Below are positions 11,588 through 18,195 of a DNA stretch of 64,000 nt, piece by piece. Position 1 is the stretch's first letter, and every line of letters starts with the position of its first letter. The notes beneath the pieces were generated by a model, which made no database searches, was not told the DNA's origin, and was given only the letters and a program-made list of their open reading frames with translations. Origin of the DNA: Aestuariispira ectoiniformans (lineage in GTDB: Bacteria > Pseudomonadota > Alphaproteobacteria > UBA8366 > Aestuariispiraceae); NCBI RefSeq assembly GCF_025136295.1, contig NZ_CP062788.1, positions 682,001-746,000 on the forward strand, in the 5' to 3' direction. Made by a program: the position numbers and the translations under genes.

Positions 11588-14500
11588 ATGACGAACCACA
11601 TGTCTGCGGAAATCACCAAACTGCCCAGCGCCCAACGGCCGCTTGACGGGCCGAAACCGGAAGACCTGGCAAAGACGCGGGCCGGGTCCCGGCGTTTCAA
11701 CCGCCGCCTGACGGCTTTTGCGAGCCTGATATCGCTGGCCTGGCTGGGCACCTGCGTGTGGTATGTCGACCGTTTCCTTGGATGGGACCTGCTTTCGCAG
11801 ATGCTGCCGCATGAACTGGCGGGCGGCGTGGCGGGGGTTTTCGCGCCGATTGCCTTTTTCTGGTTCGCCGCCTCCTATGCCAAACGCGGCCACTCCCTGC
11901 GCTATCACACCGAGATGCTGCAACGCCAGTTGGCCCTGCTGACCTATCCGGCGGAAGACGCGGATTACCGCATACAAACTGTGGCCGACAGCCTGCGGTC
12001 CCAGGCGGCAGAGCTGAAAACCGTCAGTGACGAGGCGCAGAAAACCATCGAGGCGCTGACCACCCTGCTGCAGGAACGGACATCCGCCCTGTCCACGGCC
12101 TCGAACCGGGCGGTGGATCACGCAGGCGAGGTGCGCAGTGCCCTTTCCGGGCAGTCGGACAAACTGGAAAGCCTGTCGGACCGGCTGGAGCAGCAGCGCC
12201 GTAGTATCGACGAAACCGTGGAACAGCAGATCACCGGCCTGACCAATGCCGCCGAACTGGCGCGCAGCCGGTCGGAAGAGGTCAGCGACAGCCTCAAGGC
12301 GCAGGCCAGCGATGTGGTCGCCGCCACGGAAAAGGCGGCGAGCCGCGTAGAGGATATGAGCGGCTTGATCGACGGCTATGTGGAACAATTGTCCCAGTCG
12401 TCCGAACGGGCGCTGGACCGGACCACATCCATCGGCAATCAGCTTGACCGTACCAGCGATCATATGACCCAGGCGGTGGAATCCGTGAATATCAAGGCAG
12501 GCGATATCGCCCAGCGCCTGCGCGAAATCGTCAAACAGATCGAGGATCGACTGGGTGACAGCTTCGAGTTGCAGAAAGATGCGCTCAACGAATTTGCCGA
12601 CAAGGCGGGCGACCGTCTGGACGGGTTGTCCAAGGCCCTGCGTGACCAGACCGAAATGACCAGTGTGCGCATTCATGAGGTCTTCGTGCGCCTGGATCAT
12701 GACCTGAACAAGATGTTCGAACAGGCGCGGCGCGGCAGCAACAGCCTGGGCGATGGTCTGTCCGATCAGGCAAGCGCCTTTGGTGAACGGTTGGGCAGCC
12801 TGATGACGGAACAGACGGCGAAATTGCAGGCAAGCCTGAAACAGGGCGGCGAACAGGTGCAGGACATCACGCTTGCCCTGCAGCACCAGAGCCGGGATCT
12901 GGCCCAGGCGGTGGATCAGTCCGCCAACCGGGTCGCCAGCATCAAATCCGCGATTACCGAACAGACCGAGGAACTGGGCAACCTGTCTGCACAGTTGTCG
13001 GATCACGCACAAACCGTGAACCGGTCCGTCGATATGCAGTCGGGTGCGCTGAAGCTGGTGTCCGAACAGGCGACGGCACAGGTGGAAACACTGGGCGAGG
13101 CCCTGCGGGAACAGGCCGGTGAAATTGCCAAGGCGACCGATCTGGCCGCCGCCCGGGCGGAAGCCATCCGCGAGGCCCTGCATGCCCAGGCCCAGGAACT
13201 GGGCGAGGCGTCCAAACGCACCTACCAGCAGGCGGTCGAGGTGGAAAACCTGCTGGCGGAGCGGATGGCGGCCATCGGGACCGTTCTGGGTGACGGCGCA
13301 AAGGATGCCGAAGGGGTGCTGGCCCCGGTTCTGGAACAATCGCGCAGCATGGCGGAAAGCCTGCGCCAGCAAAGCCACGGCCTGCGGGAATCCTCCGACT
13401 GGGCGGCAGGGCAGGCGCGTTCCATCGCCGAAATCCTGGCCCAGCAAAGCAAGGACCTGCGCAGTGCCTCCGACCATGCCTCCGTTCAGGTGCGTGAAAT
13501 CCGCGACACCATCAAATATCACACCGCCGACCTGACCCAGGCGTCTGAGAAGGCGGCGCAGGAGGCGGCACGTATCCGCGAGGGACTGCGTGAGGATGCC
13601 AAGGTTCTGGGCGACCTGTCGGCAACCCTGTCCGAACAGGGCGAGGCGATCCGGCAGAGCGTGAAGGCGCAGGCCGATCAACTGGGCGGGGCTTCTGCCC
13701 AGTCAGCCGAACGGGCGTTGGAAATCCAGAACAACCTGGAAGATCAGGTCCTGGCCCTGCAGGATGCCATGAATACCGTCAGCGAGCGCCTGAACAAGGC
13801 GGGCAGCGCCTTCCGGGGTGAGGCCGGTGGCTTCAAGGAAAGCGTGGCCGACGCGCTGGCCCTGATGGAAGAAGTGGGCGAGCGCTTCTACCAGCAGAAG
13901 GAACGTCTCACCAGCGCCTCCGTCCAGGCGGGCATGCAGATGTCCGACAATCAGGAAGGCATGAAGGCCCTGAGCGATACCCTGACGAAAAGCGCCGAAG
14001 ATGCCGCCAAAACCGTGCAGATGATCTCCGATGCCTTCGCCAGCCAGTCCGGCCGGATGGGTGAGGAGGCGGACAAGGTCAGGGAACGCCTGACCTCCCT
14101 GACCGACCTGATGAAGGCGCAGTCGGAAGAATTAAGTGCGGCGGGAGACCTGTCGCACCAGAAAGTCTCGAAAATGGCGAGCACGCTGGACGAGCAGACG
14201 CAGAACCTGAACCAGTCTTCCGAACGGGCCACCAGCGCCCTGCATCAGGCTGCCACCCGCGCCCAGGCCAGCGCCAAACAACTGGCGGGTACGGTCAAGA
14301 AGGCCGCGGCCGAGGCAGAGGAAAGCATCGTCACCTTCGACAGCCAGACCGAAAAGCTGTTGGAAGCGGCGGACCGGGCAGGCGATAAACTCATCGAGAT
14401 CAAAGGGTTGGAAGAAAGCGCGCAGAAAGGCCGTTTCCTCAAGACCGTGCGCTATGTGCTGGAAGACCTGAACAGCACGGCGATTGACCTGACCCGCATC

Positions 14501-14794
14501 ATGGATGCAGACGTTCCGGAAACGGAATGGAAACGCTATGTGAAGGGGGATCGCGGGGTCTTTACCCGGGCGATCCTGCGCCAGAAACCGACCGCGGTCC
14601 TGACCCGTATCCAGGCGCGCATGCAGGAGGATTCAGAGGCCCGCGCCTATATCCTGCGCTATGTCCAGCAGTTCGACAAACTGTTGCGGGAATGCCAGAA
14701 GTCCGACCCGGAAAACCTGATGGAATCCACCCTGCTTACCGCCGATGTGGGCAAGCTCTACATTTTACTGAAACAGGCTTTGGGCGAGGACTGA
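11588..14794 (+). CDS. large two-TM protein with 25-residue tandem repeats
   Basis: A 1068-residue protein that I do not recognise as a named family. A short basic cytoplasmic N-terminus precedes two transmembrane helices (about 43-60 and 79-97). From residue 132 to roughly 780 the chain is built of 25-residue units in near-perfect register. Each unit opens with an I-R-E-x-L-like start, then Q-A/S/T, D/E-L, a Ser/Ala-Ser-Asp/Glu-x-Ala core and Q-A. This is a helical, probably coiled-coil rod with a 7+7+11 spacing. The last 130 residues, from about KGRFLKTVRYVLEDLN, look globular. The layout recalls the polarity protein TipN, but homology is not shown. The final codons were replaced by an inserted element. 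AGGGGG sits very close to the ATG, so the start is uncertain. Confidence 0.75.
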   Translation: MTNHMSAEITKLPSAQRPLDGPKPEDLAKTRAGSRRFNRRLTAFASLISLAWLGTCVWYVDRFLGWDLLSQMLPHELAGGVAGVFAPIAFFWFAASYAKRGHSLRYHTEMLQRQLALLTYPAEDADYRIQTVADSLRSQAAELKTVSDEAQKTIEALTTLLQERTSALSTASNRAVDHAGEVRSALSGQSDKLESLSDRLEQQRRSIDETVEQQITGLTNAAELARSRSEEVSDSLKAQASDVVAATEKAASRVEDMSGLIDGYVEQLSQSSERALDRTTSIGNQLDRTSDHMTQAVESVNIKAGDIAQRLREIVKQIEDRLGDSFELQKDALNEFADKAGDRLDGLSKALRDQTEMTSVRIHEVFVRLDHDLNKMFEQARRGSNSLGDGLSDQASAFGERLGSLMTEQTAKLQASLKQGGEQVQDITLALQHQSRDLAQAVDQSANRVASIKSAITEQTEELGNLSAQLSDHAQTVNRSVDMQSGALKLVSEQATAQVETLGEALREQAGEIAKATDLAAARAEAIREALHAQAQELGEASKRTYQQAVEVENLLAERMAAIGTVLGDGAKDAEGVLAPVLEQSRSMAESLRQQSHGLRESSDWAAGQARSIAEILAQQSKDLRSASDHASVQVREIRDTIKYHTADLTQASEKAAQEAARIREGLREDAKVLGDLSATLSEQGEAIRQSVKAQADQLGGASAQSAERALEIQNNLEDQVLALQDAMNTVSERLNKAGSAFRGEAGGFKESVADALALMEEVGERFYQQKERLTSASVQAGMQMSDNQEGMKALSDTLTKSAEDAAKTVQMISDAFASQSGRMGEEADKVRERLTSLTDLMKAQSEELSAAGDLSHQKVSKMASTLDEQTQNLNQSSERATSALHQAATRAQASAKQLAGTVKKAAAEAEESIVTFDSQTEKLLEAADRAGDKLIEIKGLEESAQKGRFLKTVRYVLEDLNSTAIDLTRIMDADVPETEWKRYVKGDRGVFTRAILRQKPTAVLTRIQARMQEDSEARAYILRYVQQFDKLLRECQKSDPENLMESTLLTADVGKLYILLKQALGED
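14733..14794 (+). repeat. left direct repeat (attL-like), functional gene tail
   Basis: This is the in-frame 3' end of the repeat-protein gene. Positions 14733-14760 are identical to 16738-16765. Positions 14761-14794 encode the same YILLKQALGED plus stop as the right copy but use TAC, ATT, TTA, GCT and GAC where the right copy uses TAT, ATC, CTG, GCC and GAT. Confidence 0.85.
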
Positions 14795-14923
14795 TAGCGA
14801 AATTATCAATACATCGCGCTTTTTACGATGGCCTATTACCAAATTACTTGCGTCTATATTTCAATGGACTAATCTTCATTGGTGTGATGTTTGTCCTTAA
14901 TCTATTATTAGGCGTGTAGTCCT
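14795..14923 (+). other. AT-rich leader between left repeat and deaminase gene
   Basis: A 129-bp non-coding stretch, strongly AT-rich compared with the flanking gene. Studied AvcD systems have a small antitoxin RNA (AvcI) encoded just 5' of the deaminase gene, so this is where one would look. I see only weak local pairing (CAATG/CATTG around 14862-14882) and no clear terminator. A TTG-initiated 23-residue hydrophobic frame exists at 14848-14919 but has no ribosome site. No RNA gene can be claimed from sequence alone. Confidence 0.3.
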
Positions 14924-16486
14924 ATGGTAAATTTAGCTTCAGAAATACATGCGAACGATGAAACTGGAACTGGCGTTGCCACGGATATTAAAGACCGGTT
15001 GTCTCAAGAGTTAGTGTTTGCACTTATTGGGCCTGTTGCATCAGGGGTCTCTACAGTCGCGGCACAAATAGAAGATCTTTTAAAGAGTCGGTTTGGATAT
15101 AAAGTATGTGAAATTATCAAACCCAGCGACATAATTGAAAATGAAGCCCACAGGGTAAGCACATCAACTATTCCGAAGACGCCGATTTCCAAAAGAATTC
15201 AAGCACTTCAGAATGCGGGTAATGAGTTACGAGAAAAATACGGTAACAATTATCTGATCGAAAAGTCGATTGAAAAAATTGTTGAATTTAGAAAGGCTAA
15301 TGATGGCTACAAGGATCATCTATTACTCCCTGGTAGACGGGCATATATAATAGATTCTCTTAAAAATCCCGAAGAGTTAGAGCTTCTTAAGCAAATTTAT
15401 GGTGCTACCCTCTGTGTATTTGGAGTGTTTTCGCCAGATGAAATCAGGCGCCAACGTTTGATTGATAACGGGGCGAAGGAAGACGATGTGCGGACCATTA
15501 CTTCCAGAGATGATAACGAAGTAATTTCATTCGGCCAAAAAACTAGGAAGATATTTGAAAAAGCAGATTTTTTTATCTGCAATGATCAAAAAGAAGATGT
15601 TTTAAGAGTTAAAGTTCAACGTTATCTTGACCTAATTTTCGGTACCAAAGTTATCACACCAAATAGAGCAGAGTCAGCAATGTATGAAGCAAGTTCTATA
15701 GCGGTGAATTCGGGCTGTATGTCGAGGCAAGTTGGTGCTGCTATTGTTTCAAAAAATGGTGAATTGATCTCTGTAGGATGGAATGACGTCCCCAAGTTTA
15801 CTGGCGGTCTATACTGCGAAGACGATCAATATGTCATTCACGACCAAAAAGTTGAAGACTTGGATAACCGCTGCTTTAAATGGAAGCAGAAAAAATGCCA
15901 CAATGAAATCCGAAAAAATGCAATAATTGATGACATAATTATTAAGGCTAATGAGAAAGAATTAGTTAAAAAAGATTCTGACAAGGAAAAATTAAAAGAA
16001 ATTATACAAAGTACAGATATAAGTAACTTAATAGAGTTTTCACGGTCAATTCATGCGGAGATGGAAGCAATATTAGCTGTTGCTAGAGAGGGAAAGCATT
16101 CTCTTGTCGGGTCGACGCTATATTCAAAAACCTACCCTTGTCATAATTGTGCAAGACATATTGTAGCTGCTGGTATCAAAGAAGTGATTTACATTGAGCC
16201 ATACAGGAAAAGTCTTGCAACTGACCTGCATTCGGATGCTGTGACAGAAAACCCAAATGACAAAACGCGAGTGATTTTTCGGCAATACGATGGTGTCGCA
16301 CCACGAAAATTCAGGAAATTGTTCACCCCAAGAGGGGAACGAAAAGAAGATGGGTATGTTGTTGTGCAGGACCCAAAAAAAGTGAATCCCGTTCTTCAGA
16401 TTGCATTAGACTCAAACGCCGAGTATGAAGCGAAGGTCATTGCAGATTTAGAAGAAAAAGAGCATAGTGATTCTAGGGATTCGTAG
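14924..16486 (+). CDS. AvcD/DcdV-like anti-phage deoxycytidylate deaminase
   Basis: A 520-residue two-domain protein matching the AvcD/DcdV (dCTP/dCMP deaminase) phage-defence family. These enzymes deplete deoxycytidine nucleotides during infection. The N-terminal half is a P-loop kinase-like domain with GPVASGVST at residues 36-44; the usual Walker Lys is replaced by Val. The C-terminal half is a zinc deoxycytidylate deaminase. The HAE motif has His377 and the proton-shuttling Glu379, and PCHNC has zinc ligands Cys406 and Cys409. An extra Cys-rich loop (CFKWKQKKCHNE) precedes it. The gene is AT-rich and lies inside a direct-repeat-bounded insert. No good ribosome site precedes the ATG. A host thymidylate-pathway deaminase is less likely given length and context. 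Confidence 0.88.
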   Translation: MVNLASEIHANDETGTGVATDIKDRLSQELVFALIGPVASGVSTVAAQIEDLLKSRFGYKVCEIIKPSDIIENEAHRVSTSTIPKTPISKRIQALQNAGNELREKYGNNYLIEKSIEKIVEFRKANDGYKDHLLLPGRRAYIIDSLKNPEELELLKQIYGATLCVFGVFSPDEIRRQRLIDNGAKEDDVRTITSRDDNEVISFGQKTRKIFEKADFFICNDQKEDVLRVKVQRYLDLIFGTKVITPNRAESAMYEASSIAVNSGCMSRQVGAAIVSKNGELISVGWNDVPKFTGGLYCEDDQYVIHDQKVEDLDNRCFKWKQKKCHNEIRKNAIIDDIIIKANEKELVKKDSDKEKLKEIIQSTDISNLIEFSRSIHAEMEAILAVAREGKHSLVGSTLYSKTYPCHNCARHIVAAGIKEVIYIEPYRKSLATDLHSDAVTENPNDKTRVIFRQYDGVAPRKFRKLFTPRGERKEDGYVVVQDPKKVNPVLQIALDSNAEYEAKVIADLEEKEHSDSRDS

Positions 16487-16496
16487 GGGAAATGCT

Positions 16497-16694
16497 ATGA
16501 GTAAGAAAGATGCTCAGTCGAAGCAGTTGTCCTTAAAGCTGGATGGTGAAGCTTCACCTGAACGTAAGACAGCAAAAAAAACCGAAGTTAAAGCAAAAGT
16601 TATTAGCCTTACGAGTGCAAAAACGAAGGCGTTAAGGCGAGAGGCTATTCGGCGCGTGGCGCGGTCTGGAATTTTTGCGGTGCCTCGGACATAG
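16497..16694 (+). CDS. small basic protein next to AvcD-like deaminase
   Basis: A 65-residue protein starting at the ATG at 16497 with a GGGGA ribosome site about 6 nt upstream, 10 bp after the deaminase stop. It is rich in Lys and Arg (KTAKKTEVKAKV, then KTKALRREAIRRVARSGIF), has no hydrophobic segment and no recognisable domain. The tight spacing suggests co-transcription and co-translation with the deaminase. It could be a partner protein, a nucleic-acid-binding factor or an excisionase-like element. None of these can be shown here. The original AvcD systems as I know them do not include this gene. Confidence 0.65.
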   Translation: MSKKDAQSKQLSLKLDGEASPERKTAKKTEVKAKVISLTSAKTKALRREAIRRVARSGIFAVPRT

Positions 16695-16737
16695 AATTAC
16701 CTAGAAACAAGTTAAAAAACGCAACTGTAGTCCAAAT

Positions 16738-16799
16738 TGCTTACCGCCGATGTGGGCAAGCTCTATATCCTGCTGAAACAGGCCTTGGGCGAGGATTGA
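16738..16799 (+). repeat. right direct repeat (attR-like), displaced native gene tail
   Basis: A 62-bp remnant of the original 3' end of the repeat-protein gene, still ending in YILLKQALGED plus TGA with host-like codons. It has no start codon and is not expected to be expressed. It marks the right edge of the insert. The intergenic sequence resumes GC-rich composition immediately after it. Confidence 0.85.
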
Positions 16800-16839
16800 T
16801 GCCAGAGGGTTGAGGCTCCGGGAGGGGGGCCTTCTGGTC

Positions 16840-17277
16840 CTACCGTTTTGCCTGTGAGGTGGCGATGAAATCCAGGGTCGGCTCCGACGGAATGCCTGCC
16901 CATTCGCAAGCCTCCTCCAGATCGCTGAAGACGCGATAGTCGGCGGTGATGGCCTGGTTGTTGTCGCAAAGGGCGCACCAGTAGTTCAGAACCGGTTCCG
17001 CCAGTTCGTCCAGGCTGACCATGGCAGAGCGCGGCCGCTGCAATCCTTTGGCATTGAAGCTTTCCGCCATATGGCTCTGGGCCAGTTTGATGGCGTCGAT
17101 ATCCATCTGATGCAGTTTTGAATTCCTGTCGAAGATATTGATCTGACGGTATTGCGCGCCGGGTTCGATCCGGGCGGCCACCGTGTCGAACATATCGACG
17201 CAGTCCTGCAAGGTGATCACGTTATTGAAATAGGTATAAATATGCCGATGGTCGTTATCGACCTCGCAGATCATCAT
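16840..17277 (-). CDS. hypothetical protein, STAS/SpoIIAA-like
   Basis: A 145-residue soluble protein of unknown function. The alternating strands and helices, a central INIFDRNSKLHQMDID-type segment and a closing DYRVFSDLEEACEWAGIP resemble small SpoIIAA-like/STAS proteins that alphaproteobacteria often carry in many copies. No catalytic motif is visible. The start has two consecutive ATGs at 17277 and 17274. It faces the right end of the AvcD-like insert and lies 57 bp downstream of gluQ on the same strand. The family assignment is tentative. Confidence 0.6.
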   Translation of the reverse strand: MMICEVDNDHRHIYTYFNNVITLQDCVDMFDTVAARIEPGAQYRQINIFDRNSKLHQMDIDAIKLAQSHMAESFNAKGLQRPRSAMVSLDELAEPVLNYWCALCDNNQAITADYRVFSDLEEACEWAGIPSEPTLDFIATSQAKR

Positions 17278-17334: not shown

Positions 17335-18195
17335 TCATACTAATGATTTGGGGCGGTGCAATTGAATTAGGGCCCTGACATCGTCAGGACTTTGGCCGCT
17401 TTCGCGCAGGGCCTGCAGGGTGGGGGCCTTGTCCCGTTTGGCGAAACGTTTGCCGGTCTCGTCGGTCAGCAGGGGATGGTGATGGTAAACCGGCTCCGGC
17501 AGGCCAAACAGTGCCTGCAGGACCCGGTGCACATGGGTGGCGTGGAGCAAATCCTCGCCGCGTGTGACCAGAGTGACATGTTGCAGGGCGTCATCGATGG
17601 TGACCGCCATGTGATAGCTGGTCGGCACGTCCTTGCGGGCCAGCACCACATCGCCACAGCTTTCCGGATCAACCGCAATCTGCCCAAGCGCACGGTCGGT
17701 GAAGGTAAGCGGTCCTGCCAGTTTCGCCGCCTTGTCCATATGCAGGCGGATCGCATGGGGGGTGCCCTGTGCGATCAGGTCATCCGCCTCGGCTTTCGGG
17801 CGATGCTTGCAGATACCGGGATATAGCGCGCCGTCGGGTCCATGGGGCGCGCGCGGGGCATTGTCCACCTCTGCCTGGATTTCGCGTCTGGTGCAAAAAC
17901 AGGGATAGGTCAGACCCGCTTCCTCCAGGCTGTGCAGGAAGGCTTCATACCGTGCAAAATGATCCGACTGGCGCAGGACCGGTTCTTCCCAGGTCAACCC
18001 CAGCCAGGCGAGATCCTCCTTGATCCCGTCTTCGAATTCCCGTTTGCAGCGCGTGATGTCGATATCCTCGATACGCAGCAGGAACCGCCCGCCCGCCTGC
18101 ATGGCCTGTTCATAGGCGAACAGGGCCGAATAGGCATGGCCCAGATGAAGCCTGCCAGAGGGGCTGGGCGCAAATCGGGTGGTCATCGTCAACAT
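17335..18195 (-). CDS. gluQ: glutamyl-Q tRNA(Asp) synthetase
   Basis: A 286-residue paralogue of the catalytic half of glutamyl-tRNA synthetase. It attaches glutamate to queuosine at position 34 of tRNA(Asp). The class I signature FAPSPSGRLHLGHAYSA is present, and the KMSKS-equivalent is KRFAKRD. The zinc site is formed by CFC and YPGIC. It lacks an anticodon-binding domain, as expected. GGGA lies close to the ATG at 18195, and an ATG at 18186 is an alternative. It diverges from alkA with a short shared promoter region. Confidence 0.93.
   Translation of the reverse strand: MLTMTTRFAPSPSGRLHLGHAYSALFAYEQAMQAGGRFLLRIEDIDITRCKREFEDGIKEDLAWLGLTWEEPVLRQSDHFARYEAFLHSLEEAGLTYPCFCTRREIQAEVDNAPRAPHGPDGALYPGICKHRPKAEADDLIAQGTPHAIRLHMDKAAKLAGPLTFTDRALGQIAVDPESCGDVVLARKDVPTSYHMAVTIDDALQHVTLVTRGEDLLHATHVHRVLQALFGLPEPVYHHHPLLTDETGKRFAKRDKAPTLQALRESGQSPDDVRALIQLHRPKSLV

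What the first reader, a model, noticed from the sequence alone, without database searches (positions are those of the whole stretch)
14733..16799. Site-specific 2-kb insert that replaces a gene's 3' end with a recoded copy
Direct repeats of 62 bp at 14733-14794 and 16738-16799 are offset by exactly 2,005 bp. The first 28 bp are identical. In the remaining 34 bp there are six substitutions, all synonymous in the host frame (Tyr, Ile, Leu, Ala and Asp codons), so both copies encode YILLKQALGED plus stop. The left copy is AT-biased like the insert and the right copy GC-biased like the host. The element therefore seems to have recombined in a coding gene and restored its reading frame. This parallels prophages in icd, but here the cargo is a tiny defence element without a visible integrase.
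Basis: partly seen in the sequence, partly recalled or inferred. Interest (0 to 1): 0.88.

Follow-up and report, generated by a model that had tools for sequence, protein, structure and literature searches.

The report
Integrase-less two-gene defence insert
A 2-kb piece of foreign DNA carrying an anti-phage enzyme sits in the last codons of a bacterial gene and brings a reworded copy of those codons that keeps the gene whole, although no recombination enzyme was found in it.

Summary
Two 62-bp direct repeats (14733-14794, 16738-16799; offset 2,005) share an identical 28-bp core followed by six differences, all synonymous in the host frame. The host is a conserved 1,068-aa coiled-coil gene. The insert is AT-rich and holds an anti-phage dCTP deaminase (DCD/AvcD; NF041025, 474.5 bits) plus a 65-aa ORF resembling one beside a phage DCD. 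In the nearest relative found, Aestuariispira insulae, the gene ends 61 bp from GluQRS: an empty site. None of 31 relatives' gene ends that could be scanned is repeated. The right copy uses host codons, the left insert-like codons, so the left copy most likely came with the insert. No integrase was recognised in the insert, and no attP or second occupant was found. A second case turned up in L079: DCD plus small ORF between perfect 42-bp repeats that copy a hydrolase gene's first 14 codons. DCDs often sit at the ends of virus records (24 of 47). Best reading: a recombinase-dependent, integrase-less integrated element, CIME/H47-island-like, reduced to one defence unit. Whether it moves in trans or is a relic is open.

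The parts
11588..14794 (+). Interrupted host gene, 1068-aa coiled-coil protein; at least its last 34 bases (from 14761) are taken to come from the insert
   Evidence: Open frame; C-terminus matched in 38 of 43 genomes of the order; Pfam gives only coiled-coil-type matches below cut-off
14733..14794 (+). Left repeat (attL-like): 28-bp core plus recoded 3' end of the host gene, ending with the stop codon
   Evidence: insert-like codons TTA, GCT, ATT
14733..14760 (+). 28-bp identical core, presumed crossover region (left copy)
   Evidence: inverted arms GCTTACC/GGCAAGC are not significant (10% of random 30-mers score as well)
14795..16737 (+). Unique part of the insert (1,943 bp, AT-rich)
   Evidence: GC 0.35-0.44 in 500-base bins inside against about 0.6 around; absent from A. 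insulae at this place
14924..16486 (+). Anti-phage dCTP deaminase (DCD / AvcD family), 520 aa, deaminase motifs HAE and PCHNC present
   Evidence: NF041025 474.5 bits over cut-off 400; PADLOC dCTPase 6.5e-167; invariant residues
16497..16694 (+). Small ORF, 65 aa; resembles a small ORF directly downstream of a phage DCD, so probably a partner of DCD rather than a mobility factor
   Evidence: No family in Pfam, PADLOC, NCBIfam or PHROGs; alignment to the L175 small ORF scores above all of 500 shuffles, a pair chosen by eye; phmmer over 17,577 short frames, that one included, did not report it
16738..16799 (+). Right repeat (attR-like): 28-bp core plus the displaced native 3' end of the host gene
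   Evidence: host codon usage; relatives use CTG rather than TTA, 14 to 1
17335..18195 (-). GluQRS, the gene that lies next to the host gene end in A. insulae
   Evidence: NCBIfam; synteny in L053
10758..11408 (-). Left flank gene, uracil phosphoribosyltransferase (upp), syntenic in A. insulae (L053) and in L054
   Evidence: Pfam UPRTase 255 bits; synteny

Best explanation
A small circular DNA of 2,005 bp (or a larger element that has since shrunk to it) carried a copy of the last 62 bases of the host gene. A recombinase that cuts within the shared 28-bp core joined it to the chromosome by one crossover. The gene body was thereby spliced to the element's own, synonymously diverged gene end, so the protein is unchanged, and the native end was pushed to the far side of the insert. 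The insert encodes an anti-phage dCTP deaminase and a small ORF, probably its partner; the recombinase must have come from elsewhere or was lost. Shown: the repeats, the recoding, the empty site in the nearest relative found, no recognisable integrase. Inferred: crossover in the core, a tyrosine-type recombinase, a circular form, defence activity.
For: Repeat geometry, exact 28-bp core and all-synonymous differences. Empty site with preserved flanks (upp, host gene, GluQRS; stop codons of host gene and GluQRS 61 bp apart) in A. insulae. No repeat in the 31 of 42 relatives' loci that could be scanned, 26 of them with at least 2.5 kb downstream. Codon usage and relatives' codons assign the left tail to the insert and the right tail to the host. 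Complete DCD with intact motifs. A second insert of the same build, 42-bp perfect repeats copying a gene's first 14 codons around DCD plus small ORF, offset 2,189 bp.
Against: No recombinase, attP or second occupant of the site was found. The core does not occur within the 16-17 kb around two of the four recombinases of the same genome (best 17-19 of 28, as in five background stretches). Inverted arms in the core are not significant. Only 1 of 29 other DCD loci shows tight gene-end repeats. The nearest relative is another genus (60% identity in the last 164 residues). The relatives' Tyr codons do not separate the copies.
Confidence: 0.74

Rival explanations
1. Relic (a sub-case of the best reading): a phage, satellite or conjugative element that integrated here with its own integrase and carried DCD as end cargo has lost everything but that cargo and both att sites.
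For: In virus records of at least 20 kb DCD lies within 2.5 kb of a record end in 24 of 47 (6.6 expected), and 36 of 50 records searched hold a tyrosine integrase match (34 over cut-off). In five of six E. coli loci opened (of 52 chromosomal ones), DCD is next to a tyrosine integrase, among phage-type genes, beside yjjG; the sixth is among ICE genes.
Against: No gene fragment was recognised: DCD starts 129 bp from the left repeat and the small ORF ends 43 bp before the right one. L079 shows the same tight build (282 and 106 bp), so the same trimming would have happened twice.
Confidence: 0.38
2. Natural minimal unit (the other sub-case): the 2-kb element moves as such, using the integrase of a co-resident element with the same site specificity.
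For: Two independent compact examples, window and L079. Precedent: the H47 island of E. coli lacks recombinase genes yet excises and integrates (abstract of PMC3191183).
Against: No helper with this site was found; 28 of the 29 DCD loci outside the window lack tight gene-end repeats, though four of them are cut by a contig end within 450 bp of DCD.
Confidence: 0.36
3. RecA-type homologous recombination of a circular DNA that carried 62 bp of the gene, without a site-specific recombinase.
For: The end product would look the same; the homology runs over the whole 62 bp.
Against: The shared stretch is very short for RecA (established knowledge). It ends within one base of the stop codon in the window and starts at an apparent start codon in L079, as expected for att sites that must keep a gene intact.
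Confidence: 0.15
4. Local duplication of the gene end in place, then divergence, with DCD captured by chance.
For: Two copies of one gene end.
Against: The left copy, the one in use, carries insert-like codons and six synonymous changes with no amino-acid change; the boundaries coincide with the AT-rich insert.
Confidence: 0.04

Closest known systems
Cis-mobilizable elements (CIME)
   Same: Both att sites kept, integration genes absent (definition seen in passages of PMC5704250).
   Different: That passage has CIMEs arise by decay of ICEs or IMEs; here no relic of transfer or integration genes was recognised and the cargo is one defence unit of 2 kb.
H47 genomic island of E. coli (microcin H47)
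   Same: Imperfect direct repeats, no recombinase gene, recombination functions supplied from outside (abstracts of PMC3191183, PMC5426353).
   Different: 13 kb, microcin cargo; excision was measured there and not here. The abstracts say nothing of a restored gene end.
Prophages and islands in coding genes (icd, dusA)
   Same: Integration inside a gene end with a replacement end supplied by the element (icd recalled; for dusA the abstract gives the 5' end as target, and a section heading of PMC4482086 says that integration may restore DusA function).
   Different: The dusA islands have the integrase gene as their only universal feature; none was recognised here.
Anti-phage dCTP deaminase / AvcID system
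   Same: The cargo protein is a member by curated model.
   Different: The AvcI RNA antitoxin was not identified (no Rfam match, leader folds no better than shuffles); a small ORF follows the gene.

Membership tests
Anti-phage dCTP deaminase (NF041025) | Score above the curated cut-off over the full model | tested here: met
   474.5 bits against 400, profile 1-437 of 437
Anti-phage dCTP deaminase (NF041025) | Zinc deaminase motifs HAE and PCxxC (motifs recalled) | tested here: met
   H377 A378 E379, P405 C406 C409 invariant in five DCDs
AvcID type III toxin-antitoxin | AvcI RNA upstream of AvcD | tested here: inconclusive
   127-nt leader, fold z-score -0.34, no Rfam match at E 0.5; whether Rfam holds AvcI was not checked
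CIME | attL and attR retained | tested here: met
   28-bp core in both repeats; that they are att sites is inferred
CIME | No integration or transfer genes | tested here: met
   Pfam on DCD, the small ORF and one overlapping frame and on ten further frames of 40-93 aa on both strands: no integrase or transfer family; frames under 40 aa and some of 40-60 aa not searched
CIME | Descent from an ICE or IME, mobilised in cis | tested here: inconclusive
   No parent element after the gene end in the relatives that could be scanned
Integrase-bearing island in a coding gene | Integrase gene within the element | tested here: not met
   None in the insert; four PF00589 hits in the genome, all elsewhere
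Integrase-bearing island in a coding gene | Element supplies a replacement gene end | tested here: met
   Left repeat in frame, all differences synonymous, insert-like codons
H47-type recombinase-less island | Excision without its own recombinase | not testable with these tools
   Needs PCR of the circle or empty site

The most novel reading that the evidence does not exclude
Single defence units (DCD plus its small partner) travel as about 2-kb integrase-less cassettes. Each carries only att sites built from the start or end of a host gene, evolved synonymously so that the gene stays intact, and each borrows the integrase of a resident phage or satellite: a defence gene that parasitises the integration system of the very elements it fights.
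Probability: 0.28. Interest if true: 0.78.

Novelty: new variant of a known kind. Interest (0 to 1): 0.52.

Why it matters
If the 2-kb form is a unit in its own right, defence genes can spread with nothing but attachment sites, and searches for mobile elements that start from an integrase miss them. The recoded gene end suggests earlier residence in related hosts. The window and L079 give two defined sites where excision can be tested directly.

Tried and rejected
Viral contigs were scanned for the gene-end motif as a possible attP: two hits, each inside a phage gene that happens to encode TADVGKLY; neither gene has a Pfam match and 'structural-type' is my reading of the neighbours. A longer pattern gave none. 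Phage records gave no DNA match to 14700-17000. Plasmids gave 38 records, none covering 80% of the query; the eight rows shown cover 8%, all inside the DCD gene, and 30 rows were not shown. A search of genome contigs with the single DCD protein confirmed no relative. Curvivirga aplysinae looked occupied (29% GC after the gene), but its contig ends 120 bp on and the stretch holds what looks by eye like a terminator hairpin. Two partial matches in G023 look like a contig break (one ends at the end of its 4,182-base contig); not followed. A core search around two recombinases of the same genome gave background values; the two with 341-aa frames were taken as Xer-like from size only (recalled) and not examined. 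Inverted arms in the core: not significant. L139 has a 57-bp repeat, but it looks like a terminator sequence and also brackets a neighbouring 388-aa ORF, so it was not counted. Lone AT-rich DCD islets (L075, L077, L078, L082, L138, L144): best repeats score 9-12 against 10-12 in one reversed control each, except a 19-bp imperfect repeat in L078 (score 16, control 10) that lies outside the AT-rich part; L082 is cut 292 bp upstream. In the wider scan L074 has an exact 18-bp repeat 3.3 kb and 1.8 kb away from DCD; taken as chance, not followed. L144 against a congener was not syntenic on one side. The family of G121 holds one genome, so the empty site of L079 could not be tested. Rfam: nothing. 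Whether the core resembles a dif site was not tested.

Full report
Observation. All six are synonymous in the host frame and both copies read LTADVGKLYILLKQALGED and stop. Simulated random substitutions would all be synonymous in 3 of 10,000 cases. Raw base composition hardly separates the copies (four differences favour AT on the left, two on the right), but codon usage does: the right copy scores 13.3 and the left 2.5 in log-odds for host over insert usage, driven mainly by TTA and GCT, which are rare in the ten window genes used.

Host gene. The interrupted gene (11588-14794) is a 1,068-aa coiled-coil protein whose C-terminus is conserved: 38 of 43 genomes of the order match. The nearest relative found is Aestuariispira insulae (Aestuariispiraceae, Rhodospirillales), 60% identical in the last 164 residues. 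There upp lies on one side, as in the window, and on the other the stop codons of the host gene and of GluQRS are 61 bp apart. The site is therefore empty in that species. Of 42 named loci returned, 31 showed the gene-end motif and could be scanned. None has a second copy (best 24-35 of 62 bases, against 56 of 62 in the window); 26 of the 31 have at least 2.5 kb of downstream sequence. Where relatives keep the same residue they use CTG rather than TTA 14 to 1 (10 other), GCC rather than GCT 6 to 2 (21 other), ATC rather than ATT 12 to 5; the Tyr codon is uninformative, 15 to 16. The left tail is thus most likely the incoming one and the right tail the displaced native one.

Cargo. The insert has 129 bp of leader, then an anti-phage dCTP deaminase (474.5 bits against a cut-off of 400; PADLOC dCTPase 6.5e-167) with intact HAE and PCHNC motifs, then a 65-aa ORF, then 43 bp. 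The small ORF has no family in Pfam, NCBIfam, PADLOC or PHROGs and no match in 58 related genomes besides its own, in plasmids or in phage records. Phmmer over 17,577 short frames from the other DCD loci reported no convincing relative (best E 0.24), although the frame of L175 was among them. Yet direct alignment to that 72-aa ORF, which lies directly downstream of a phage DCD with 49% identity to this one, beats all of 500 shuffles; I picked the pair by eye, and 9 of 36 pairs of such small ORFs reach p 0.02. The small ORF is most likely part of the DCD unit. Pfam recognises no integrase or excisionase in DCD, the small ORF, one overlapping frame or ten further frames of 40-93 aa.

Second case. 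Twenty-nine other DCD loci were scanned: 10 from 11 of 289 class genomes and 19 from 20 of 397 phylum genomes, the own genome left out of both. One, L079, has the same build: DCD and a 57-aa ORF (80 aa from an earlier ATG) between perfect 42-bp repeats, offset 2,189 bp, in GC-rich surroundings. Here the repeat is the first 14 codons, from an apparent start codon on, of an alpha/beta-hydrolase gene (Pfam Abhydrolase_6, 45.8 bits) on the other strand, so the insert supplies a gene start; it also adds a second ATG just before it. Both inserts thus end on a coding boundary, the stop codon in the window and the start codon in L079. In the other 28 no repeat scores above 18 except in L139, whose 57-bp terminator-like repeat also brackets another ORF. 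Four of the 28 are cut by a contig end within 450 bp of DCD (L082, L148, L149, L150), so they could not show the pattern.

Where DCD usually sits. In 47 virus records of at least 20 kb DCD lies within 2.5 kb of a record end in 24, where 6.6 are expected for uniform placement (16 of the 63 records were left out: 15 shorter ones and one short partial match; record ends are partly contig ends, and records are not independent, so the p-value is only indicative). Of the 50 records searched, 36 have a tyrosine integrase match, 34 over the cut-off. In E. coli 58 of 5,426 genomes matched one plasmid DCD gene at DNA level, 52 on chromosomes. I opened six: in five DCD is beside a tyrosine integrase, among phage-type genes, next to yjjG; in the sixth it lies among ICE genes. 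This makes a phage or satellite end a likely source of the window's cargo.

Mechanism. The anatomy is that of one crossover between a circular DNA carrying a gene-end copy and the chromosome, within the 28-bp core. The synonymous drift of the incoming tail suggests that it served as a working gene end in other hosts before. What moved it is not shown: no recombinase was recognised in the insert, the core is not found around the two recombinases examined in this genome (four PF00589 matches in all), and no attP was seen in virus contigs or phage records. Two readings are about equally likely: trimming of a larger element, favoured by the frequent place of DCD at virus ends; or a unit moved in trans, favoured by two equally tight examples without recognisable gene scraps.

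Known relatives. Elements that have lost integration and transfer genes but kept both att sites are known as CIMEs (passages of PMC5704250). The 13-kb H47 island of E. coli has imperfect direct repeats and no recombinase gene, yet excises and integrates (abstract of PMC3191183); in later work none of the 16 E. coli K12 site-specific recombinases appeared to be involved (abstract of PMC5426353). Islands in the 5' end of dusA have the integrase gene as the only universal feature (abstract of PMC4482086). AvcID is a published DCD toxin-antitoxin system (search listing and start of abstract of PMC10511110 only). My searches for related elements listed no paper that I recognised as describing a two-gene defence insert of this kind. 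They cover open-licence papers only, show 1 to 20 titles each, and I read abstracts or passages, no full text.

Verdict. The general claim, a class of gene-end cassettes that carry one defence unit and borrow their integrase, rests on two cases and needs the tests listed.

Noticed in passing
L079: 6633-8863: Second compact DCD insert, bounded by perfect 42-bp repeats that copy the first 14 codons of an alpha/beta-hydrolase gene.
   Followed up: partly
L077, L079, L081, L082 downstream of DCD: Small ORFs of 57-62 aa directly after DCD: L077, L081 and L079 share a W..W(M)K-like motif and pair at p 0.004 or less in shuffling tests, L082 more weakly (0.010, 0.018). A second set (window, L175, L136; L074 only through L136) shares a KQL-type start. 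Possibly overlooked DCD partners.
   Followed up: partly
L075, L077, L078, L082, L138, L144: DCD genes as lone AT-rich islets of about 2 kb in GC-rich chromosomes, without repeats at their edges (L082 cut upstream, L078 with a weak repeat outside the islet).
   Followed up: partly
L175-L237 (viral contigs): DCD is concentrated at the ends of virus records: 24 of 47 within 2.5 kb of an end, 6.6 expected.
   Followed up: partly
window 16840-17277 (-): ORF with a sub-threshold SpoIIAA-like match between the insert and GluQRS; not found in the same place in A. insulae.
   Followed up: no
window 14924-16486, N-terminal part: The P-loop-like stretch GPVASGVST lacks the usual lysine; the same region of L079 and L175 also lacks it, read by eye.
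   Followed up: no
L075, L076, L139 (and less clearly L080) downstream of DCD: A different protein with similar sequence (such as KWIIDARATPRLD in L075) follows DCD in these loci, another possible partner; the L139 copy has no Pfam match.
   Followed up: no
L152: 5625-13115 (own genome): A 487-aa tyrosine recombinase lies next to type I restriction-modification genes (specificity, HsdM and R subunits by Pfam).
   Followed up: no
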